DNA of 39,444 nucleotides from contig JABDGZ010000015.1 in NCBI GenBank assembly GCA_013285735.1, positions 1 to 39,444 on the forward strand, written 5' to 3'. Made by a program: the position numbers and the translations under genes. The stretch comes from Candidatus Omnitrophota bacterium (lineage in GTDB: Bacteria > Omnitrophota > Gorgyraeia > Zapsychrales > Fredricksoniimonadaceae). The notes below the pieces were generated by a model. That model was not told where the DNA came from and did not search any database. It saw only the letters and a list, made by a program, of their open reading frames with translations. Positions 1,019-29,269 of the stretch are shown one piece after another. Position 1 is the first letter of the stretch. Every line of letters begins with the position of its first letter.

Positions 1019-1225
1019 TCAATGAGTTTGTAATGCAGTATTTTGATTCAATTCTAGAAATTGAGTAAGACTTTTTAGCGGCTGAATAGTAATGCTCCCA
1101 ATTGTCAAGCCAGGGGCGTTTTGCCATTGGGCAAGCTGGGCTGAATCTATGTGAAATTTAATCCCTATACCCCCGTTTTGGATTGTTAAAGGTGTTCTTT
1201 GGGCTGTAAAATCAATACCGCCGCG
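1019..1225 (-). other. Conserved C-terminal 'GGID' module of G1
   Basis: GGIDFTAQRTPLTIQNGGIGIKFHIDSAQLAQWQNAPGLTIGSITIQPLKSLTQFLELNQN. Confidence 0.8.
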
Positions 1226-4200
1226 CATCGCATGGTCTCTGCCATGGGCCATATCTCTTTTAAGAGCCTCAATTGAATCTCTTACATCAAGCATAATATC
1301 CCCGCTCGGCCTAACTTGATGCAAATCAACAAAAATACCACCGTCTAAATATTTAGCTTGTTCAATAAGACTGCCGTTTTGAGCCATTAATTGATAGGCT
1401 TCCCTAGGTATCTCTTGTCCGGGGTGGTCTTCTAACCATTTGTTACTTAATCTGCTAAAATATTTTAAAACAAAATAAACACTATGCTCATCTTCTCCTA
1501 ATTCCAGCTTCCATCTTAACCAAGGTTGAATTCCAGGATTTCGTGATAACATTGATGAAAAATCGGGATTTTTAGCTAATCTTTCATATGTCTCGGGAAA
1601 AAAATCTCCATACGACAACATACGATATAAAATCGAATCTTTCATTTCACCTCCTTCAGGGATAGTTTGATAAGAAAACACATCTAGAATATATGGTGCT
1701 TTTAAAATATTGAAATTGAAACGGCTTTCGTACCCATATAACTGTTCAAACACGGAAAGCTGGTCATTGATCTCTTGAGTGGTAAGATGATTAGCCTCAG
1801 CAGATGAGGCCATATAGGACCTTAAACTAGGTTCGATGTGCGCATGGAAACCTAAGGCAGATTCTAAATTTAAAATTTGATCAGCAGTTGCAATAAGTTC
1901 TGCCCTTTCCCTATTATCATTATGAGAATGCTGCCCCCTTAAAGATAGCCATCTGCTATTTAAAATTCCAACATAATGTTCCATATTCAGCCCACCTCTT
2001 ATAAATTTTAAAGCGGGAGCATTATGATCAGCATCCACATGGGATAACGTTATGATTTGAGGGTGATCTCTTGGATCTATAACTATAGAATGGTTAAGTT
2101 CTTCAACAGCCATAGCTCCGACATGGTCAGAAACTACTTCTGGTTCTGAATTATTTTGAGCAGAGAATTTACCATGATTATAAGCAAAATCTTGTATACC
2201 AAAAAAAGTTGCAATTTTAAGAGCTTTAGGTAAATAATCCATATCAGTGCTGTGAAAATTCCCTTTATTTTCTCTAAGTTTCCCAAACATATCCATCACC
2301 GTCCAAGTTTTTGAGGCATCCGTAAGGCTATCATAGGTCAATTCATGCGAAAGTTCGGTATACGTTTTTAAACGTACATAGATTGATGGCAAAAAAACAC
2401 CCCACAGATGATAGAAATCATGGCTGAGATCGGCAATTTTAATCCCTGTACGTTGTCCCTTAGGAATACTATCATTTCCTTCTGCGTCCACCGGACGCCA
2501 AAATATCACCGGCCTGCCTTGATCATCAACCTTGTTGGCTCCACTCGAATTAAGGGTATACGTTAAGAAGCTTGGTTGAAAATGATTCCACACATAATAT
2601 GTCCCTACTTGTCCATCCATGGCCCAAGGGCTTCCTACTATCCCTTCCGGGTTTCTGGCAACGGATTTAAACAAATGACTGATCGAGGCAATAACATTGA
2701 AAAGGTCAACTTCTTTTAGGTTCGAACTCTCTGCATATTTAAATGCCTGATGTATCAATTCTGCCTGGGTGATCCTGTGGGCATGGGGATTTTGGAATGA
2801 AGTCATTTCCTGCACCCATTGCAAAAGCAGCCCTGCGTTATTATTGACATAGTACGATTGTTTTCCGGCATCTCCAGATAAATAATGACTTATTAAACCT
2901 TCCACATCACCTATGTTAACTTGTTTTTTATCAGGCAAGGTTACCGCGTAACCTTTTTTATGATATTCATCGACTGTTTGAAAAATGGCATGATAAAAAC
3001 CGTCTATGGCCTGCTGGCGGGTAAAGGCTACCGCTTCATATGGAGCTACCGGGACTCTAGGTGCTGTAATTAAAGGCCCTAAAAACACGCTTTGCGAAAT
3101 CCTGGAATTTGAGGAGTATTGTACGACATTTAATGCTCGCGTCATTTCTCCGTATAATTGACGCATCCGTTCGGACTGTACAACAGCCCTTTTATCTATA
3201 ATCGTTTTTAACCATTTCCCACTTTCTATATCTTGAAAATTGTCCATTAATTTTTCATAAAAAATGGCAAAAATTTGCTGGCGGATACCAGGCTTTAACT
3301 GGGAAAAATGTTGTGAAAATTCCTGCATTTGTTCAACAGGGATCTCAGATAAATAACGATAGGTTAATGCTGGTCTAGTACGTAAACCATTGAATAAATT
3401 ATTTGAATCGTCAACTGAAAGCATCCTAAGAAGGCTAGGTGTCACTACAGCTGATACAGGTTGGTTTTGAGGATACTCGGCAAATAAATTTTGCCAAAAA
3501 AACCTGTCTGCTGTTTTCGTTTTTAACGCTTCTTGGATCCTTTGTTGCTGTGAAAATACTGTTGATGGTTGGAATGTATTCCCATCAAATTCAGTAATAC
3601 GACCGTTTTGAAAAACAATTTCCGGCTCGGTGATAGGCCGCGAAAAAGAATGTCTTAAAGATACATCATATCCCCAACGCATCCAAATATAGATACCTAA
3701 CACTGACGCGACGAGTACAACAGCACTTACTTTAATTACCTTTTTGGCACGTCTTTTGAATTTCGATTCTGGCTTCTTTTCACCTTTTTTAAAAGGATTG
3801 ACTTGCGCTGCAATCAATCTCAAGTTACCTTTTATCATATCCAGCGGGCTAATCATGGCCTCATCGGTGGTCTCATTTAGAGGAACTATTAGTTGCAATC
3901 CGCCTGAAAAATATTTCCTTGGGATTATTTCTTGAGTTATGGGATCTTGCTCTTCTTTAATGTAGTTATAAACACCCTTTTTAAAAGCTTTCAAATACTC
4001 CTTATATAGCCCCTCAACATCATTCCTGAAATGTATACCTGCTCTTAGAGGAATTATAGTAGAAGTGTATTGGACTCCTGCCACCTTGTTTTTGTCTGCG
4101 TATATTTCATCCAAAATACTGTCTTTGATTTTCTTTTTGTACCATGTCGCTAAAATAAGAGAATTATAAACTTGTCGTAGTGAGACGAAATTCTTGTCTT

Positions 4201-4957
4201 CGTTAATTTCCTTAGTAAGTTCGGGGATGACAATTTCGCGAACAACTTGACTGCCTAATTGACTCGTCCCCGTGATTTGGGTTTGGTTTGATTGAATGCC
4301 TTCGTGCTTGACTAATGAAAGATAATCTTGCTCTAACATGACTTTGAGTTTGCTTTCAACCACATAGGCTGCCCCTATTTTAGCATTCTCATAAACAACT
4401 GCCTTCTCAGGAACTATCCATACTTTGTTAAATGTGTTAACCGGTATATTTGTTGTCCCATATCTTTGAAATGCTTCTTCGTAAATACGCTTCCAAAATT
4501 TCTTTCCAATTTCGTCTTCAGGATAAATCAAAGATGCTGTTATCTGTTTGAGCATATAATCTTCGGCTAATAGATCTCTGCCCATTTCCGTTAAACCAAA
4601 ACTTTGAGGAATTATACGGTCTTTTTCATAAGGTGAAAGATTGACCCATAAATCTCTTTCAGGAATGGTTAGAGATGCCAGGAAATATTTGATTAACTTT
4701 CTTGATTCATTTTTGAGTTGATCATTATTTAATTCACCATCGCCTTTATCAAGAATAAAGTCAAAGCGAAAGGGGTTATCAGGATGAACTTTAATACCTT
4801 TAAGGATTGGAGGATCAAATGGAGGACTTAGATGAACCATTACTCCAGGAGCTGGCAAATGGTAATCTTGAGCATAGATAGGCATTGGGCCTATAATACC
4901 CGTTATCAAAAAACTTAGCAAAGTTAGGAAAGCCAATGGGGCTCTCGTCATGGTCAT
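1019..4957 (-). CDS. Giant modular secreted/membrane protein G1 (1312 aa): conserved N-module, one TM, unknown His-rich middle, conserved C-module
   Basis: ORF track. Signal peptide MTMTRAPLAFLTLLSFLITGIIGPMPIYAQ. N-module shared with the 14227-18540 and 26276-29269 ORFs. TM segment VIKVSAVVLVASVLGIYIWM. C-terminal GGIDFTAQ...GIKFHIDSAQLAQWQNAPGLTIGSITIQPLKSLTQFLEL. Confidence 0.9.
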   Translation of the reverse strand: MTMTRAPLAFLTLLSFLITGIIGPMPIYAQDYHLPAPGVMVHLSPPFDPPILKGIKVHPDNPFRFDFILDKGDGELNNDQLKNESRKLIKYFLASLTIPERDLWVNLSPYEKDRIIPQSFGLTEMGRDLLAEDYMLKQITASLIYPEDEIGKKFWKRIYEEAFQRYGTTNIPVNTFNKVWIVPEKAVVYENAKIGAAYVVESKLKVMLEQDYLSLVKHEGIQSNQTQITGTSQLGSQVVREIVIPELTKEINEDKNFVSLRQVYNSLILATWYKKKIKDSILDEIYADKNKVAGVQYTSTIIPLRAGIHFRNDVEGLYKEYLKAFKKGVYNYIKEEQDPITQEIIPRKYFSGGLQLIVPLNETTDEAMISPLDMIKGNLRLIAAQVNPFKKGEKKPESKFKRRAKKVIKVSAVVLVASVLGIYIWMRWGYDVSLRHSFSRPITEPEIVFQNGRITEFDGNTFQPSTVFSQQQRIQEALKTKTADRFFWQNLFAEYPQNQPVSAVVTPSLLRMLSVDDSNNLFNGLRTRPALTYRYLSEIPVEQMQEFSQHFSQLKPGIRQQIFAIFYEKLMDNFQDIESGKWLKTIIDKRAVVQSERMRQLYGEMTRALNVVQYSSNSRISQSVFLGPLITAPRVPVAPYEAVAFTRQQAIDGFYHAIFQTVDEYHKKGYAVTLPDKKQVNIGDVEGLISHYLSGDAGKQSYYVNNNAGLLLQWVQEMTSFQNPHAHRITQAELIHQAFKYAESSNLKEVDLFNVIASISHLFKSVARNPEGIVGSPWAMDGQVGTYYVWNHFQPSFLTYTLNSSGANKVDDQGRPVIFWRPVDAEGNDSIPKGQRTGIKIADLSHDFYHLWGVFLPSIYVRLKTYTELSHELTYDSLTDASKTWTVMDMFGKLRENKGNFHSTDMDYLPKALKIATFFGIQDFAYNHGKFSAQNNSEPEVVSDHVGAMAVEELNHSIVIDPRDHPQIITLSHVDADHNAPALKFIRGGLNMEHYVGILNSRWLSLRGQHSHNDNRERAELIATADQILNLESALGFHAHIEPSLRSYMASSAEANHLTTQEINDQLSVFEQLYGYESRFNFNILKAPYILDVFSYQTIPEGGEMKDSILYRMLSYGDFFPETYERLAKNPDFSSMLSRNPGIQPWLRWKLELGEDEHSVYFVLKYFSRLSNKWLEDHPGQEIPREAYQLMAQNGSLIEQAKYLDGGIFVDLHQVRPSGDIMLDVRDSIEALKRDMAHGRDHAMRGGIDFTAQRTPLTIQNGGIGIKFHIDSAQLAQWQNAPGLTIGSITIQPLKSLTQFLELNQNTALQTH
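3900..4957 (-). other. Conserved N-terminal module of G1 (approximate limits)
   Basis: LPAPGVMVHLSPPFDPPILKGIKVHPDNPFRFDFILDKGD...LIKYFLASLTIP..LWVNLSPYEKDRIIP...EIIPRKYFSGG aligns by eye with G2 and G3. Confidence 0.85.
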
Positions 4958-14226: not shown

Positions 14227-14420
14227 TTATACAGGTACTTTGAAACCCATTAGAGACATGATATTAAAAACAGGTGTGATTTTAAAAATCACCGGCCTGA
14301 CTCCTGAAAAATCACCGCGTCTAAACTGGGCGATCAGTCTCGGGTCGAAACGCATGTTGATAGTTTGACCATCAACATCCATTTTCATATTTTTGGAATT
14401 AAGGTCGATACCACCGTCTG
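14227..14420 (-). other. Divergent C-terminal 'GGID' module of G2
   Basis: GGIDLNSKNMKMDVDGQTINMRFDPRLIAQFRRGDFSGVRPVIFKITPVFNIMSLMGFKVPV. Confidence 0.65.
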
Positions 14421-17400
14421 CAGGCTGTATTGTCTGGCGCACAGCTGGTACTAATGCCGCCAAAGCAAGGGTACCAAGAACAAGCACTTTAACAACTCCA
14501 TTCATAGCGACATCAGTTTTTGCCGTTTGAGCAAAATCTTGTCTATACTGTTTAACTTGTTCACGTAATTCTGCCGCTAATTTTCCCATGGTTCTAAGAC
14601 CACTTGACAAATTATTGTATTGAATTCCAAAATTATGTTCAGTTGTAAAAAACTGAATGTTGCTATTACCAAATAAAATTCTAATGATGGTTTTTAGAAC
14701 GTCTGGAGTAGTTGCATCTCCCAAACGAAGCATATTCGGGTAAAGTGCGGTAGCCATTTCTTCACGATTACCGGCAGAAACAATTTGAAAACTATTTACT
14801 GCTTGTTCAACAAGATCCAAAGCTGAGCTATAATCCACAACAGAAAACTCACCTAAAGACTTACCCGCGCTATCTGTGATATTAATTTTCGCATCACTTG
14901 GGATAGTACCATTCATCGCTTCGTCACGATGAATAGAATTTGGATTAACTGAAATATTTCTAGAAGCAAGAGTAAATATAACAACTTGTGTCGGAGGCAT
15001 ATTGGGGTCTACCCAATCTAAGAGAGGAACATCCTGATATTTATAGCCAACCTTTACTCTAATACGTTTAACTTGACCACGTTCATCTAATTCATATCTA
15101 GCTTCTTGCCTTTTAGTAGCAGCAGGCCGTGCTCTTAATCCTCTAGGTAAACTCACCTTCTCACCTGAAGCTGCCGCAAGTATTTGAGCCCTTTCAAGAA
15201 CTTGGTCTCTGGCGCTGACTTCACTGCTCCTTGCCTGTTCTCTGTGATTAGATGTGCGGCTTACAAAAAATTTCTCCCCAGCACTTTGAAAACTTGCCAA
15301 CCTTTCTACAGCATTCTTGTATGCTATTTTAGAAACACCAACTGCATCTAACGTCGGTACATCTTTATTGGAAAGAGCATGACTTGAATTTTCCAAATAA
15401 CTAAGAGTCCGCTGTGCTTCCCTGCGTTGTTCTTCAGTTAAACTCGGGTCTAGTATCATTTGTACTAATTTTGTTGCTAATCGTTTTTTAAAACTGGATC
15501 TTATGTCTGAAACAATTTGCCATTGTGCGAGTTGACACATTATCTCGAGCACATACCTGAGACCTTCGCCATTTCTTAACTTTTTTAAGTCGAAAATCAT
15601 TTCCTTCAATTTAACAGCATCAGTTTTAATCAACGTACTGTTCCCCACCCAAAAACTTATCTGTTCAGATGGAGGTTGAGTTGAAGAATATTTTGATAAG
15701 CTTCCCAACACTGTGCTATTTACCTCAGGAACTACATTACCCCTTATTTTAATCCTTCTTACTTCAGCAGTTTGCGTTACCATTAAAGACTTAATCAAAC
15801 CATCTACAGTTCTGCTATCAATCAAATTTGCTACCGTCATCGCCACGTCATTAAATTCTATACCATCAGCTTGAAAGTCCTCCCTGAGACGATCTGATAG
15901 TTCTTGTAATTCTGGCCCTCCTCCTAAAAGATGGTAGGTTTGTTGAACTAATTCAGCAATTTGCTTAGGTGAAGGTTTATATTGATTTCCTAGTACTATA
16001 ACTTTTCTTCCATCAACCCACTTAGCAGTCAAGGTTTCTCCCTCACCCACCACAACCCTTATATTAAAAGGATACTGCTCATCATCAAGATATTCATTAA
16101 TTGTAGATTCGGTGACGGATTGGGTTACGCGTACCTGCTCTGTTCTGGCTTTTGCTAAATAATCCTCGACATCATGATCTCCAAAATAGATTCTTGAAAG
16201 ATTGTCACCCTCATCGCCTAATTTAACAAGAATGGTCGCTAATAATTTCGGCAAACCTGGATCGGTAATATCGCCTTGTCTTATCCCAACGATATCATAC
16301 AAAATTTCTAATTTTTCCTTGTTTATAGCACCTCGTCGAATTAATCCATAAAGAATACCAAAACTATTTACTCCCTTTTCATCTTTTAACGTGCGATTTT
16401 TGATCATGTAATCAACAAGCTCTTTTTGTCTAACACTCAGTAATGTTCCAGTTTCAGGTGTATATTTATCAAAGAAATGGGCCAAGGCTGCCCCAATCCC
16501 TCCTCCAATACCTACTGGAATAAGATTTGACGCCAATCGTAAAGCCAAATGCTGTTGCTCAAGCCACTGATGGTAACCAGGAATATCTTGATTAAATGGT
16601 TTTAAAGTAGCTAATGCAGCAATTGTAAAAAAGACTGGCCAATCAGTCTTATTGAAGAAAAAATTTCTCTTTGGATTACCAACATCATTCTCAACCTTAA
16701 TTAATTCCTCATCTTCAATCCCTGTACCATTTTTTATGGCATTCTCAGTAGCCGCAATTAATTGATCCCCCATGCGTTCATACCCTCGAATACCACCACC
16801 TATCTTAGTCCCTGTAATAATTTCAATTAAATTGAATAATATATTACTAGTGTCCAAACGAGGATCATGAAATTCGCCAAGAGCAATCCCTGAGGCTATA
16901 ATCGTTACCACACCTCCAATATGCCAAAGATCGTTACGAAATTTCTTGTAGTATTTGAGTTTCTCTTCAAGCGTCCTTGCATTCTTACCATTTCTATAAT
17001 CTTTCATACTGTTGACAATACCAATGGCCAAGGCAGCAATCCCTGCAGTATGTGCCGCACTTGACAAGACACGAGGAGATGTCAATATTTGCATCAATTC
17101 TGCGATCATCGCATCGTCTTCAGGATCCATATTCTCAGGTATTCCCCAAGATGCTAATTCTTGCGTAGCTGCCTGTTCGAACTCCTGGGATTTTGTAATA
17201 TTCATGGAGTGACCAGCAACGATAATGACTTGAGGATTTGTTGTCATAGAAACTGATAAACCATGAGCTATCAAAGAACCTACTACCTGACTGCTTGTTG
17301 AACCATTGGCTAAGGTCAAAACTTGTGTAAATGAAGTTGTAACTGCAACGGGAGATTTTACTGTTTGAGCCATTGGTGTTCCTGCTGTAACCCAATACGT

Positions 17401-18540
17401 TGGTTCAGACAACGAAAAGGTTGCAGGAAATTTTTTCACGTCGTCATCGTCAAAATTTCTAGTATCTGTTTCAATTTCTTCAGCATTTATCTTTAGCCCA
17501 CCCGAGAAATATTTCCTTGGGATGGTCTGACCATTTTGAATATCTTCCTTAATATAGTTAAAGACCCCTTTTTTGTAGGCTTTCAAATATTGTTGATAAA
17601 TGAAGTTGGCATCCATTTTATGGATTCCCGCCTGCGCGGGAATGACAAGGTTGGAGATCTTAGACTTATTACTGTAAACTTGATTTAAAAGAGCTTCTTT
17701 GAGATTTTTCTTATACCATGCAGCTAAAATCATCGAATGAAAAATTTGGCGGAGATTGGCAAAGTTTTTGCCGGTGTTGACTTCTTGTTCAAGTTGAGGA
17801 AGAACTATCTCTTTAATAATTTGAGAAGCAACTGAATGAGTCGTGTTCTGGATTCCCGCTTTCGCGGGAATGACATTGTTGATACCGGAATGTTTTTGAA
17901 GTGACAAGTAATCTTCTTCTAACATTACTTTCAAATGGCTGGCTACTACAAAAGCGGTGTTGTCGTGGACATAGACCTTGGCTTTATCGGCTACTATCCA
18001 TACCTTATTAAAGGTATTTACAGGGATTTCGCTCGTTCCAAATTGCTCTTGGGTTTTGGCATACACCTTATTCCAAAATTCACGACCTAAATTCTTCTCG
18101 GGATATATTAAAGAAGCTGTTAATTGCTTTAAGATATAGTCCTCTGCCAGCATATCACGGCCCATTTCAGTTTGGCCTAATTGGTCAGGGATAATCCGAT
18201 CCTTCTCATAAGGACTTAAGTTAACCCACAAATTATCTTCAGGGATGGTCAAAGAAGCTAAAAAATATTTAATTAACTTCTCAGATTCAGCCTTTAACTG
18301 TGGGTCACTGGCAGAAAGGCCTGAATTTCCACTATCGACTAAAAAATCAAAAAGAATTGGATTTTCAGGATGGACCCGTAAGCCTTTGACGATTACAGGG
18401 ACATACGCAGGGGTCAAATTGATCATGGTTCCAGGTGTCGGCAAACCTAAAACGGAATCAGCATGAGCTTGAGGCAGAGAGCCTAAGCTTGTTAAAAAGA
18501 AGCTAACAATAACGCTCAAACTTAAAATTTTCTTAAACAT
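14227..18540 (-). CDS. Giant modular secreted/membrane protein G2 (1437 aa), multi-TM middle
   Basis: ORF track. Signal peptide MFKKILSLSVIVSFFLTSLGSLPQAHA; N-module LPTPGTMINLTPAYVPVIVKGLRVHPENP...IPRKYFSGG; several hydrophobic segments (e.g. LWHIGGVVTIIASGIALGEF, DWPVFFTIAALATL); divergent C-module GGIDLNSKNMKMDV...INMRFDPRLIAQF. AAGGAG upstream of the ATG. Confidence 0.9.
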   Translation of the reverse strand: MFKKILSLSVIVSFFLTSLGSLPQAHADSVLGLPTPGTMINLTPAYVPVIVKGLRVHPENPILFDFLVDSGNSGLSASDPQLKAESEKLIKYFLASLTIPEDNLWVNLSPYEKDRIIPDQLGQTEMGRDMLAEDYILKQLTASLIYPEKNLGREFWNKVYAKTQEQFGTSEIPVNTFNKVWIVADKAKVYVHDNTAFVVASHLKVMLEEDYLSLQKHSGINNVIPAKAGIQNTTHSVASQIIKEIVLPQLEQEVNTGKNFANLRQIFHSMILAAWYKKNLKEALLNQVYSNKSKISNLVIPAQAGIHKMDANFIYQQYLKAYKKGVFNYIKEDIQNGQTIPRKYFSGGLKINAEEIETDTRNFDDDDVKKFPATFSLSEPTYWVTAGTPMAQTVKSPVAVTTSFTQVLTLANGSTSSQVVGSLIAHGLSVSMTTNPQVIIVAGHSMNITKSQEFEQAATQELASWGIPENMDPEDDAMIAELMQILTSPRVLSSAAHTAGIAALAIGIVNSMKDYRNGKNARTLEEKLKYYKKFRNDLWHIGGVVTIIASGIALGEFHDPRLDTSNILFNLIEIITGTKIGGGIRGYERMGDQLIAATENAIKNGTGIEDEELIKVENDVGNPKRNFFFNKTDWPVFFTIAALATLKPFNQDIPGYHQWLEQQHLALRLASNLIPVGIGGGIGAALAHFFDKYTPETGTLLSVRQKELVDYMIKNRTLKDEKGVNSFGILYGLIRRGAINKEKLEILYDIVGIRQGDITDPGLPKLLATILVKLGDEGDNLSRIYFGDHDVEDYLAKARTEQVRVTQSVTESTINEYLDDEQYPFNIRVVVGEGETLTAKWVDGRKVIVLGNQYKPSPKQIAELVQQTYHLLGGGPELQELSDRLREDFQADGIEFNDVAMTVANLIDSRTVDGLIKSLMVTQTAEVRRIKIRGNVVPEVNSTVLGSLSKYSSTQPPSEQISFWVGNSTLIKTDAVKLKEMIFDLKKLRNGEGLRYVLEIMCQLAQWQIVSDIRSSFKKRLATKLVQMILDPSLTEEQRREAQRTLSYLENSSHALSNKDVPTLDAVGVSKIAYKNAVERLASFQSAGEKFFVSRTSNHREQARSSEVSARDQVLERAQILAAASGEKVSLPRGLRARPAATKRQEARYELDERGQVKRIRVKVGYKYQDVPLLDWVDPNMPPTQVVIFTLASRNISVNPNSIHRDEAMNGTIPSDAKINITDSAGKSLGEFSVVDYSSALDLVEQAVNSFQIVSAGNREEMATALYPNMLRLGDATTPDVLKTIIRILFGNSNIQFFTTEHNFGIQYNNLSSGLRTMGKLAAELREQVKQYRQDFAQTAKTDVAMNGVVKVLVLGTLALAALVPAVRQTIQPADGGIDLNSKNMKMDVDGQTINMRFDPRLIAQFRRGDFSGVRPVIFKITPVFNIMSLMGFKVPV
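17621..17646. repeat. Palindromic dispersed repeat TGGATTCCCGCCTGCGCGGGAATGAC inside G2 (encodes VIPAQAGIH)
   Basis: Matches 24 of 26 positions with the copy at 17849-17874; ATTCCCGC...GCGGGAAT palindrome. Confidence 0.9.
17849..17874. repeat. Palindromic dispersed repeat TGGATTCCCGCTTTCGCGGGAATGAC inside G2 (encodes VIPAKAGIQ)
   Basis: Same 26-bp palindromic unit as 17621-17646. Confidence 0.9.
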
Positions 18541-25472: not shown

Positions 25473-26285
25473 TTAAGATAAACCTAAAAACTTCCGCAGA
25501 TTCACGACTGGCTGGATATTAATGATCACCGGAACAAATCCTGGGGCATTTTTTAATTGGGCAAGCATGGCAGAGTCAAGATGGAACTTAATACCTTCTC
25601 CGAATTCTCCTGTCGAGGCCCCTGTTTTCACCTGTAAATGCATCTGTGCCGGAGTTAGGTCGATACCACCGTTTTCTAATTGAGCATGCATCATCTTATC
25701 ACGACTCACTCCTGCATCATTTATTGGATTTGCAGCATCAACTGCTTCTTTAAATAATCTATAAAAATTATTCTTACCTCTTTCAAATTCAATGTAGCCA
25801 TGACTTATTCCATTAAATCCTCTCAACCTCAACATAGCGTTAACAATGTTCATAATCAACGCATTGTTTACATTACTCGGACCAAAAGGAAGATCCCTTA
25901 TCGTTTCGTAATAATAGCTCACTATACTCTCGACAATCTCTTCCCTTGTAGCATCTGGGGATAATTTGATGCAATCAGAAAATTTAACAAAACTGGTGGA
26001 TAATCTTTCTTCTCTAAACTCCTTGGTCATGTCGCGCATCCCTGCCACTACTTCAGAAACCCACTCTTTCTTTTCCTTAACCCCATAATACTTTTTTTCA
26101 CCACTTTTACTATATCCCATGTATACAGTTTCTTGATCTGGCGTACCAATCAATTGCACCCTATGCACAGCATTTAAAAAATCCCGATATTCCTCCTCAT
26201 TGATTCCCTCAGTGATAGCTTTATGAATAAAGGCTAAGATACGTTCTCTCACAGCCAATTGATTCAAATAATAATTCACCTGCAC
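25473..26285 (-). CDS. C-terminal part of giant modular protein G3, separated by an apparent frameshift
   Basis: GTG-start ORF with no evident SD and no signal peptide, overlapping the end of the 26276-29269 ORF by 10 bp in another frame. Ends in the shared C-module GGIDLTPAQMHLQVK...GIKFHLDSAMLAQLKNAPGFVPVIINIQPVVNLRKFLGLS. Confidence 0.75.
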   Translation of the reverse strand: MQVNYYLNQLAVRERILAFIHKAITEGINEEEYRDFLNAVHRVQLIGTPDQETVYMGYSKSGEKKYYGVKEKKEWVSEVVAGMRDMTKEFREERLSTSFVKFSDCIKLSPDATREEIVESIVSYYYETIRDLPFGPSNVNNALIMNIVNAMLRLRGFNGISHGYIEFERGKNNFYRLFKEAVDAANPINDAGVSRDKMMHAQLENGGIDLTPAQMHLQVKTGASTGEFGEGIKFHLDSAMLAQLKNAPGFVPVIINIQPVVNLRKFLGLS

Positions 26286-29269
26286 CTGAGTATCTGCCCT
26301 TCGACATCATCACTAGGATCACGAACGGTCTCTAATCCAGGTATTTTAGCGGCATTCAACCAATGCAAATACTCTCTCCATATAGAGTCTTTGGGCAAGT
26401 CATTCATTAATCTATTTGTAAAATCAATTAACCTTTGTTGTGCTGTTTCAATAAGTATTCTATTTTGTGTACGTACTTTGATATTGGGATCTCTTGATGT
26501 TAAAGCACGGTCACTATCTGACTCCTTTGAAAGCTGTGCGGCATCCAGTAAATTTAAGGGTATTCTCGCTACAGGGATTTTAAACGTTACGGAATCATCC
26601 GGATCTCCTATTTCTTCTACATAAGCTTCGATTCCTATTTTCTTAAATAAATCAAGATAAAAATCTCTCTCTTGGGAATCTACATTCATTGTCACAAAGG
26701 ATACTTCACCCGGACGACGAGCCCAATAATTCAAAAAAAACCTTACCATAAACTCTTCAATTTCTCTAGATTCGGGGCCTGGAGAAACTCCCAAAATTCC
26801 TAAATGACCGCATTTAGTCCCTTTATAATCAGCTGCCGTCGTTCTTATTTTTCCAACGACTTGACCCGAGGTGGTAACAAACACATACCACCCATCGTGA
26901 TGTTCATAACGCCCCTCTCTAAATATATTTTCTAAATCACGACTTATAATGCGTTCCGGATTCGTTTCCAAACCTATACTATAAATTTGTTTATAAAGCT
27001 CGAATCTCTCAGCAGGATTTAAATCAACGGCAATGTCCCGAGGGGACAATACATACCCCCTATCTTTTAATTTAACTAAATTTCTCACATCGCCAATCAA
27101 ATTCCTAAAACTAATCAGACCCTTAATTCTACTTGCCAATGCCGCCGCTGCATCATCCATCATCGCATGATCCTTTGCTTGATCAGCGAATTGAGCAGCA
27201 TCTAAATTGATATACCGAGGATTCAAACTAGCATCACTGTCTCCTTCTGGCAGCCTTTCAATTTCCACAATTTGCCCATAAAATCTCAATCTAATGTTTA
27301 CATGGTAATGGTCACGTAAATATTCTTCAAAAGCCCGGACTTCTGCTTCGAATCTATAGGTATCTGATTCCTGAAGTATAGATTTATTCGTATCTTTCTT
27401 CATTTCCGGCATAAAAGGTGAAAGGGTCATGTGATCCACCAATAATTTTCCAGTTGGCTTTAAAGCTTTTATTAATTTAAGAATTAACGCAAGGTAAGCA
27501 TTTTCAGTACTGCTATCAAGGGCAATATAGGAATAATACAAAGAATTTGTTGATACAATCAAATCAACCTGATTTTCACCATACTCCAAATCCTGAAAAC
27601 TACCTACAAAACCTTTTACATTCGTATTATCAGGAATAATGACATCATAAATATATTTATTTCTAATAATTTTATGAAACCTAAGTATTTTTTTTAGTAT
27701 TGGATCAGTGACATCTGTATCACTGACGTACTGTTGCTGGTTTTTTGCAGCAGCATTAATTACTTGCGAGTCTCGGTCAACAACAGTCAGGTCAAGGCTT
27801 CCTGTTCTTTCAAAACTTAGCGCCCCCATCATTTCTATTGTTTGGGGCGAAGAATCAACATCTTCCAATACTCCTGCTCCTAACATAACAACCCTTATTC
27901 GTTTTTCAGAAGTAAGTAGATTATAGATGGATAATAATTTATTTAGGCCTTTCATCCTCATTGGTTTAGTATACGTTGAAGGCAAGTCTTGGGGAGGATT
28001 TCGTTCCTCATAACCTGGATTTAACGCTCGTAATATATCCCCATAATGCCCCCCTTCCATGTCTATTTCGCTGGTAATCACAGCCAGACCACTCTCTTCA
28101 CCAAAATCATGGGGGGCAGATTCCGTCACTTCCATCGCTCTGTCTATTTTAAATAAAGCCGCTCCACCAGAAAAATACTTCCTTGGAATGGGTTGTTGAG
28201 TTAACGTATCAATATCTTCTTTGATGTAGTTAAAAGCGCCTTTTTTGAAGGCTTGCAGATAGCGTTGATAAATTTTCTCTGTGTTAATAGTACTGCTCTC
28301 ATACCCGACACCAGCTACTTTTTTCTTGTCCGCATAAACTTGTGCCAGGATGCTATCCTTGATTTTATTTTTGTACCAGGCGGCTAATATGAGGCTGTTG
28401 TAGACTTGGCGAAGCTGGGCAAAATTCTTGTTTTCGTTGACTTCCTTGGTGAGCGCGGGGATGACGATTTCTCTCACAATTTGAGAGCCGAGGGCGCTTA
28501 CATCAGAATTGGTTGTTCTTTTAGAGATTGCCGCGTCGCCTACGGCTCCTCGCAATGACGGAGAAGTGTTTTTTTCCAACGATAAATAATCCTGTTCAAG
28601 CATTACCTTCAGTTTACTTTCAACAATATACGCTGTACCTGTTTTGGAATTTTCATAGACAACGGCTTTTTCAGGGACAATCCAAACTTTATTAAACGTA
28701 TTAACAGGTATGTTCGTTGTTCCAAACTTTTTCTCTGCTTCTTCATAAATCCTATGCCAAAACTTTTTACCTATCGCGTCCTCAGGATAAATTAATGATG
28801 CTGTTATTTGCTTGAGCATGTAATCTTCTGCTAACAGGTCACGTCCCATTTCCGTTAACCCAAAGCTTTGAGGGATGATTCTATTTTTTTCGTACGGTGA
28901 AAGATTGACCCATAGGTCGCTTTCTGGAATTGTTAAAGAGGCAAGGAAGTATTTGATGAGGCGGGTGGATTCAATTTTTAGCCCTTCGGGCGTTTGTTCT
29001 TGTTGAGATCCTTCGCTACGCTCAGGATGACGGTTGTCCTTATCACCTTTATCTAAAATAAATTCAAAACGAAATGGATTATCTGTGTGGACCTTAATTC
29101 CTTTAAGTATCGGGGGATTAAACGCAGGGCTTAGACGAACCATCACGCCAGGTGCCGGCAAATGAAATTCCTGGGCTTGGGCTAAAGGTTGGGGCCCAAA
29201 CGTATTGGCCAAAAATGCAAAAATAAGACAAAGAGCTATAATAGCTCTTAAATTTAAATGCTCTCTCAT
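26276..29269 (-). CDS. N-terminal part of giant modular protein G3: N-module, methyltransferase-like domain, GNAT-like domain
   Basis: Signal peptide plus N-module up to IPRKYFSGG. IRVVMLGAGVLEDVD / LDLTVVDRDSQVI / VDLIVSTNSLYY / LKPTGKLLVDH resembles class I SAM methyltransferases. YVFVTTSGQVVGKIRTTAAD...LGILGVSPGPESREIEEFMVRFFLNYWARR is GNAT-like. Lacks a C-module in frame. Confidence 0.8.
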   Translation of the reverse strand: MREHLNLRAIIALCLIFAFLANTFGPQPLAQAQEFHLPAPGVMVRLSPAFNPPILKGIKVHTDNPFRFEFILDKGDKDNRHPERSEGSQQEQTPEGLKIESTRLIKYFLASLTIPESDLWVNLSPYEKNRIIPQSFGLTEMGRDLLAEDYMLKQITASLIYPEDAIGKKFWHRIYEEAEKKFGTTNIPVNTFNKVWIVPEKAVVYENSKTGTAYIVESKLKVMLEQDYLSLEKNTSPSLRGAVGDAAISKRTTNSDVSALGSQIVREIVIPALTKEVNENKNFAQLRQVYNSLILAAWYKNKIKDSILAQVYADKKKVAGVGYESSTINTEKIYQRYLQAFKKGAFNYIKEDIDTLTQQPIPRKYFSGGAALFKIDRAMEVTESAPHDFGEESGLAVITSEIDMEGGHYGDILRALNPGYEERNPPQDLPSTYTKPMRMKGLNKLLSIYNLLTSEKRIRVVMLGAGVLEDVDSSPQTIEMMGALSFERTGSLDLTVVDRDSQVINAAAKNQQQYVSDTDVTDPILKKILRFHKIIRNKYIYDVIIPDNTNVKGFVGSFQDLEYGENQVDLIVSTNSLYYSYIALDSSTENAYLALILKLIKALKPTGKLLVDHMTLSPFMPEMKKDTNKSILQESDTYRFEAEVRAFEEYLRDHYHVNIRLRFYGQIVEIERLPEGDSDASLNPRYINLDAAQFADQAKDHAMMDDAAAALASRIKGLISFRNLIGDVRNLVKLKDRGYVLSPRDIAVDLNPAERFELYKQIYSIGLETNPERIISRDLENIFREGRYEHHDGWYVFVTTSGQVVGKIRTTAADYKGTKCGHLGILGVSPGPESREIEEFMVRFFLNYWARRPGEVSFVTMNVDSQERDFYLDLFKKIGIEAYVEEIGDPDDSVTFKIPVARIPLNLLDAAQLSKESDSDRALTSRDPNIKVRTQNRILIETAQQRLIDFTNRLMNDLPKDSIWREYLHWLNAAKIPGLETVRDPSDDVEGQILRCR
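28524..28562. repeat. Dispersed repeat AGATTGCCGCGTCGCCTACGGCTCCTCGCAATGACGG inside G3 (encodes SPSLRGAVGDAAIS)
   Basis: Recognisable dispersed palindromic repeat type (TCATTGCGAGGAGCCGTAGGCGACGCGGCAATCT on the coding strand). Confidence 0.7.
29006..29032. repeat. Dispersed repeat GATCCTTCGCTACGCTCAGGATGACG inside G3 (encodes HPERSEGS)
   Basis: Recognisable dispersed repeat type (CGTCATCCTGAGCGTAGCGAAGGATC on the coding strand). Confidence 0.75.

What the first reader, a model, noticed from the sequence alone, without database searches (positions are those of the whole stretch)
17621..17874. Two in-frame palindromic repeats (VIPAQAGIH / VIPAKAGIQ) inside the G2 N-module
TGGATTCCCGC(CTG/TTT)CGCGGGAATGAC occurs at 17621-17646 and 17849-17874. 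Each interrupts the conserved N-module exactly at a variable linker (after 'SKISNL' and after 'LQKHSGINN'), keeps the frame, and adds a short peptide. VIPAKAGIQ-type peptides are familiar as translations of dispersed intergenic palindromes. Two copies within one module suggest these repeats diversify the linkers of this family.
Basis: partly seen in the sequence, partly recalled or inferred. Interest (0 to 1): 0.72.

Follow-up and report, generated by a model that had tools for sequence, protein, structure and literature searches.

The report
Mobile DNA palindromes in protein loops
Two copies of a short mobile DNA palindrome (a REP element) sit in frame inside flexible loops of a predicted secreted Omnitrophota protein, and across some 40 sister genes the same three loops have repeatedly taken up whatever short repeat is abundant in that genome, so repeat DNA is being turned into protein sequence at fixed places.

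Summary
The genome, related to Omnitrophota MAGs, holds 96 copies. By anatomy the repeat is a CGTC-1 REP, the class that includes Neisseria dRS3 and Rickettsia RPE-6. In-frame intragenic copies of this class are known already; here it also sits in mutS, uvrD/pcrA, purL, priA, coaX, menF and queA.

What is new is the pattern in this gene family. Seventeen of 96 copies lie in 43 N-modules (about 2.5% of the genome), only at three loops between secondary-structure elements, all reading VIPAxAGIx. The 28 loaded loops in four related genomes need up to 26 changes on the module tree. The same loops also hold unrelated repeats: one expanded only in sister species G005 (64 copies there, 0-2 in seven other genomes) fills its loops. 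Genomes poor in repeats have short loops.

Best reading: recurrent capture of selfish palindromes at three permissive loops, possibly with copying between paralogues. No target duplication or dedicated transposase was found.

The parts
14227..18540 (-). host gene, 1437 aa, predicted signal peptide followed by the N-module and a C-terminal part without known family
   Evidence: ORF and translation; no Pfam or NCBIfam family; signal peptide judged by eye from the N-terminus
17489..18423 (-). N-module as aligned and modelled (residues 40 to about 350)
   Evidence: alignment A1 and AlphaFold2 model
17849..17874 (+). REP copy 1, in linker II; read on the minus strand as VIPAKAGIQ
   Evidence: loop 178-193 of the model, pLDDT under 50 at 181-187
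17621..17646 (+). REP copy 2, in linker III; read on the minus strand as VIPAQAGIH
   Evidence: loop 258-271 of the model
29000..29026 (-). linker I of a second N-module gene (26276-29269): PERSEGSQQ, a different dispersed repeat
   Evidence: 26-nt identical DNA outside modules; coordinates
28508..28561 (-). linker II of the same gene: PSLRGAVGDAAISKRTTN, a repeat-like peptide
   Evidence: one 16-nt match outside modules only; weaker case; coordinates
4032..4057 (-). linker III of a third N-module gene (1019-4957): IIPLRAGIH, perhaps a decayed REP copy
   Evidence: 16 of 26 bases match the REP; best of 2,000 random 26-mers of the gene was 14; suggestive only

Best explanation
The two inserts are copies of a CGTC-1-type REP: an 8-bp stem, a 4-nt loop, a 5' TGTC tag and a 3' CCA tail, about 27 nt long. 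It is a short non-autonomous palindromic element dispersed through this Omnitrophota genome. Copies land, or are copied, into DNA; those in coding sequence persist only where the frame stays open and about 9 extra residues do little harm. The N-module family offers three loops (I between strand and helix, II and III between helices) in 40 or more paralogous, probably secreted proteins. These loops act as recurrent acceptors for this REP and for other short repeats active in each lineage, so repeat DNA becomes linker sequence. Shown: the element is dispersed, insertions are in frame, they are restricted to three loops, they recur, and the repeat content is lineage-specific. Inferred: that new insertion plus selection against disruption is the main driver, with some exchange of linkers between paralogues. 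Unknown: the mobilising enzyme and any benefit to the protein.
For: 96 dispersed copies. Insertion proven by empty orthologues of mutS and uvrD/pcrA. Of 95 copies in 558 kb, 16 are inside modules, all in one orientation and frame; one more in the other modules. Repeat k-mers sit at linkers I, II and III and almost nowhere else in the module. The 17 module copies against 2.5% of the genome: p = 3e-10. 28 REP-loaded linkers need 9 + 11 + 6 changes on a tree built without linker columns, and flanks are near random in identity while the core is identical. Other repeats occupy the same loops; a repeat with 64 copies in G005 and 0-2 elsewhere fills G005 loops. All three linkers are loops in the model.
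Against: No transposase of the Y1 family in this genome (genome only 71% complete) and no REP beside four Y1 genes of relatives. No clean target duplication. Linkers hold about 2.9 copies per kb against an assumed 0.3-0.6 per kb of intergenic DNA, more than plain tolerance predicts. Some junctions recur in several modules and a G002 cassette is found almost only in modules, which points to copying between paralogues.
Confidence: 0.6

Rival explanations
1. The repeats spread through the family mainly by gene conversion or recombination of linker cassettes between paralogues. Only a few primary insertions occurred; shared repeats help the recombination.
For: Three modules of two species share the same linker III junction and seven share the linker I junction before QEQL. 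In G002 four of five copies of a cassette are in module linkers. One constant frame in the genus fits copying.
Against: Left flanks are near random (median identity 0.33) and right flanks 0.40. Three sites and at least about 16 distinct right-hand junctions need many primary events. The same element also inserted singly in core genes. REP-poor genomes with many modules carry none.
Confidence: 0.25
2. Positive selection: loop variation in these surface or secreted proteins is useful, for example against phages, predators or partners, so insertions in the loops are kept above neutral expectation.
For: Linker density of the REP exceeds the assumed intergenic density several-fold. Several unrelated repeats end up at the same loops. 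The family is large and has a predicted signal peptide.
Against: No function, partner or expression is known for the module; Pfam, NCBIfam and fold searches gave none. The same element also sits in mutS, purL and priA, where variation has no obvious use. Intergenic density was assumed from rough ORF calls.
Confidence: 0.12
3. The peptides are an old conserved part of the module, not insertions.
For: Several modules share the peptide at the same loop.
Against: 31 of 43 modules in this genome and all modules read from G002, G003, G006 and G012 lack it; only 8 of 80 loci from other Omnitrophota records hold any copy in 1.4-4 kb; the DNA matches more than 80 non-module copies.
Confidence: 0.01
4. 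Assembly artefact: the repeat joined unrelated contigs.
For: The genome is a fragmented assembly (69 contigs) and repeats cause misjoins.
Against: The ORF and the conserved module continue on both sides of each insert, in frame, in many genes and in four separate assemblies.
Confidence: 0.02

Closest known systems
CGTC-1 REP family (Neisseria dRS3, Rickettsia conorii RPE-6; Di Nocera et al. 2013, PMC3733652)
   Same: 8-bp stem starting with A-T pairs, 4-nt loop, CCA tail, TGTC as an allowed form of the CGTC tag, head-to-head heterodimers, intragenic copies, no dedicated transposase; intragenic copies in repair genes
   Different: Found in Omnitrophota, not among the five phyla of that paper. 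Dimers are a minority. Intragenic copies are concentrated in one large paralogous family at three homologous loops, where other repeats also land; that paper describes scattered genes.
Rickettsia palindromic elements (RPE), reviewed in PMC2229807
   Same: Palindromic DNA inserted in frame into conserved protein genes, giving added peptide, apparently neutral or slightly harmful
   Different: RPE of that review are 105-146 bp; here about 27 nt. RPE hit unrelated genes singly; here one family is hit again and again at fixed loops, with different repeats in different species.
GTAG REP with RAYT transposase
   Same: Short tagged palindrome, single units and inverted pairs, dispersed
   Different: Tag is TGTC, not GTAG; no Y1 transposase found in this genome and no REP beside four of the Y1 genes of relatives.

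Membership tests
CGTC-1 REP | 8-bp stem beginning with two A-T pairs, 4-nt loop | tested here: met
   ATTCCCGC/GCGGGAAT with loop GAAA; folds as stated, z = -4.8; definition
[quoted passage not shown]
   TGTC in 80 of 84 copies, CGTC in 4; variant allowed by the paper
CGTC-1 REP | short unpaired tail, mostly CCA | tested here: met
   tail CCA in nearly all copies
CGTC-1 REP | head-to-head dimers predominate | tested here: inconclusive
   six head-to-head heterodimers with 47-bp offset, but most copies are single, some with half of the dimer spacer
CGTC-1 REP | no associated dedicated transposase | tested here: met
   no Y1_Tnp in G000; none of four examined in relatives has the REP within about 1.5 kb; genome 71% complete
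RPE-like coding palindrome (works like) | in-frame insertion into conserved genes whose orthologues lack it | tested here: met
   mutS, uvrD/pcrA and purL against orthologues of related genomes
RPE-like coding palindrome (works like) | the inserted peptide is present in the made protein | not testable with these tools
   needs proteomics
GTAG REP / RAYT | GTAG tag at one end | tested here: not met
   tag is TGTC
MITE | terminal inverted repeats with target-site duplication | tested here: inconclusive
   dimers have inverted ends; no duplication could be defined at three filled/empty sites

The most novel reading that the evidence does not exclude
A large secreted-protein family of Omnitrophota keeps three exposed loops as acceptors for mobile palindromic repeats, so that each lineage's current repeats are recycled into fast-changing surface sequence: selfish DNA used as a general supply for loop diversification, through insertion and exchange between paralogues.
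Probability: 0.2. Interest if true: 0.8.

Novelty: new variant of a known kind. Interest (0 to 1): 0.52.

Why it matters
Insertion of palindromic repeats into proteins is known as a scattered, tolerated event. Here it is concentrated and repeated: one gene family with 40 or more members per genome, three homologous loops, several unrelated repeats, and different repeats in different species. That is a replicated natural experiment for the open question of whether coding palindromes are only tolerated or help to make new protein sequence, and for how REPs without a known transposase move.

Tried and rejected
One region request failed for being one base too long. A transposase was sought with PF01797: none in this genome, none beside the REP in relatives. 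In some searches one of my REP patterns was one base short; both checks were repeated at the right length. Pfam, NCBIfam, PDB-fold and viral-fold searches gave no identity for the N-module. Paper searches for the peptide and for REPs in Omnitrophota found nothing relevant. Most apparent CDS copies near ORF starts were set aside as false 5' extensions. One universal reading frame was considered and dropped: two loci of another Omnitrophota genome carry a reverse-orientation copy at linker II. Some of the k-mer marks in the linker II region are native IVIPEL sequence with low counts, not repeats.

Full report
Observation. The pattern occurs twice in the window, at the coordinates given, with no mismatch and no matches in shuffles. 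Both copies are inside the minus-strand ORF 14227-18540 and are read in frame as VIPAKAGIQ (linker II) and VIPAQAGIH (linker III). The genome holding the window (G000, 1.84 Mb, 70.9% complete) has 81 exact copies and 96 with up to three mismatches; the reversed control has none. Titles of the nearest N-module homologues name Candidatus Omnitrophota almost without exception; the window's own record is not named, so the phylum is inferred.

What the element is. The conserved unit is TGTCATTCCCGCGAAAGCGGGAATCCA; T precedes GTC in 80 of 84 copies. It folds as an 8-bp stem with a 4-nt loop (z = -4.8). Six head-to-head heterodimers pair it with a GGATCCCC form 47 bp away; a 73-nt dimer folds with z = -9.3. 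These features match the published CGTC-1 REP definition, which allows TGTC tags and includes dRS3 and RPE-6 (PMC3733652). That paper lists CGTC repeats in five phyla, without Omnitrophota, reports intragenic REPs, many in replication and repair genes, and finds no dedicated transposase.

Insertion in ordinary genes. The same element is in frame in mutS, uvrD/pcrA, purL, priA, coaX, a menF-like gene, queA and a short-chain dehydrogenase gene (families confirmed). Orthologues of mutS and uvrD/pcrA in related genomes lack it at that spot, with net differences of 21 and 36 nt. In purL the difference is 21 nt against most relatives, and sister species G001 carries its own copy in the same loop in another frame. 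These are therefore insertions, and in core genes the frames are mixed (HSRESGNP, SFPRKRES, VIPAxAGIx).

Concentration in the N-module family. A degenerate pattern for the PRKYFSGG motif found 44 places in G000; 43 modules were extracted. Of 95 copies in 558 kb of stretches, 16 lie inside modules, all on the opposite strand and all in the VIPAxAGIx frame; one more was found in the remaining modules. A map of dispersed-repeat k-mers on the module alignment marks 60, 112 and 53 residues at linkers I, II and III, 5 in the tail and none of about 9,000 elsewhere. The chance that 17 of 96 copies fall in about 2.5% of the genome is 3e-10. Linkers hold about 2.9 copies per kb against an assumed 0.3-0.6 per kb of intergenic DNA (the range rests on coding fractions of about 0.88-0.94).

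Structure. An AlphaFold2 model from 63 modules (mean pLDDT 77.7) puts linker I between strand 21-30 and helix 41-59, linker II at 178-193 (pLDDT below 50 at 181-187) between two helices, and linker III at 258-271 between two helices. Fold searches gave nothing significant, so the function of the module is unknown.

Recurrence. In 136 modules from eight genomes the element is in 28 linkers, all in the same forward frame, plus one reverse arm of a dimer. On a tree made without linker columns these need 9, 11 and 6 changes at the three sites. Flanks are near random (median identity 0.33 left, 0.40 right, 1.00 for the core), although some junctions recur. The number of separate events therefore lies between about 16 (my grouping of right-hand junctions, by eye) and 26. 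Frame use of 28/28 differs from 3/9 in core genes (p = 4e-5). It is not universal: two loci of another Omnitrophota genome carry the reverse orientation at linker II.

Other repeats at the same loops. Linkers also carry VIASEAKQS, VILSEAKNL, HSERSEESQ, SSPNALIGDP and other peptides whose DNA matches copies outside modules. At linker I different repeats sit directly before the same native QEQL sequence. G005 linkers carry a repeat with 64 copies in G005 and 0-2 in the other seven genomes searched. G002, which has no copy of the REP, has long linkers II with a cassette found five times, four of them in modules. G003, G006 and G012, poor in the REP, have linkers near base length, but only 5-15 modules of each were read. 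Both other N-module genes of this window also have repeat-like linkers, one clearly and one only weakly supported.

Reading. The data fit recurrent capture of short palindromic elements at three permissive loops of an expanded, probably secreted family, with other coding insertions mostly removed by selection, and probably some exchange of linkers between paralogues. Plain tolerance alone does not easily explain why linkers hold several times more copies per kb than intergenic DNA is assumed to hold; selection for variable loops, targeting and exchange all remain open. Neither the enzyme nor a benefit is known.

Verdict. The element and its in-frame insertion are a known kind. The concentration in one gene family, the exact loops and the species-specific repeat content make it a new variant, worth following in close strains.

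Noticed in passing
window 1019-4957, 14227-18540, 26276-29269 (all minus strand): Three N-module genes lie in this one window; the genome has about 44 by motif count. The module has no Pfam, NCBIfam or PDB-fold match.
   Followed up: partly
L061 (mutS), L078 (uvrD/pcrA), L076 (priA): REP copies in frame in three DNA repair or replication genes, echoing the published bias of intragenic REPs to such genes.
   Followed up: partly
L076:13922-15721 (priA): The priA gene holds two different in-frame repeats: SFPRKRES from the REP and a VIASAAKQS repeat further on.
   Followed up: no
L022:1307-2737 (-), menF-like gene: A whole REP dimer is in frame, adding VIPAEAGIQ ... LDPRFRGDD before the chorismate-binding domain.
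   Followed up: no
G000 contig C17 (L014, L015): Thirteen exact REP copies in 33.5 kb, all in the same orientation; elsewhere the orientations are mixed.
   Followed up: no
G005 module linkers (for example L184-L220) and G005 genome-wide: A repeat AAAGAGGGGGTTAGGGGGAGTT, with 64 copies in G005 and 0-2 in seven other genomes, fills module linkers, often as an inverted pair.
   Followed up: partly
G002 module linkers II (for example L173, L177, L180): A cassette with GGGGACAT...GTGTCCCC palindrome occurs five times in G002, four of them at linker II: a sign of copying between paralogues.
   Followed up: partly
L254, L279, L239, L301: Modules of other Omnitrophota genomes carry other repeat-like peptides at linker II (VDSRLRGND, PPLVGGARGGG, GAPLVGAR), so the pattern may be wider than this genus.
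   Followed up: no
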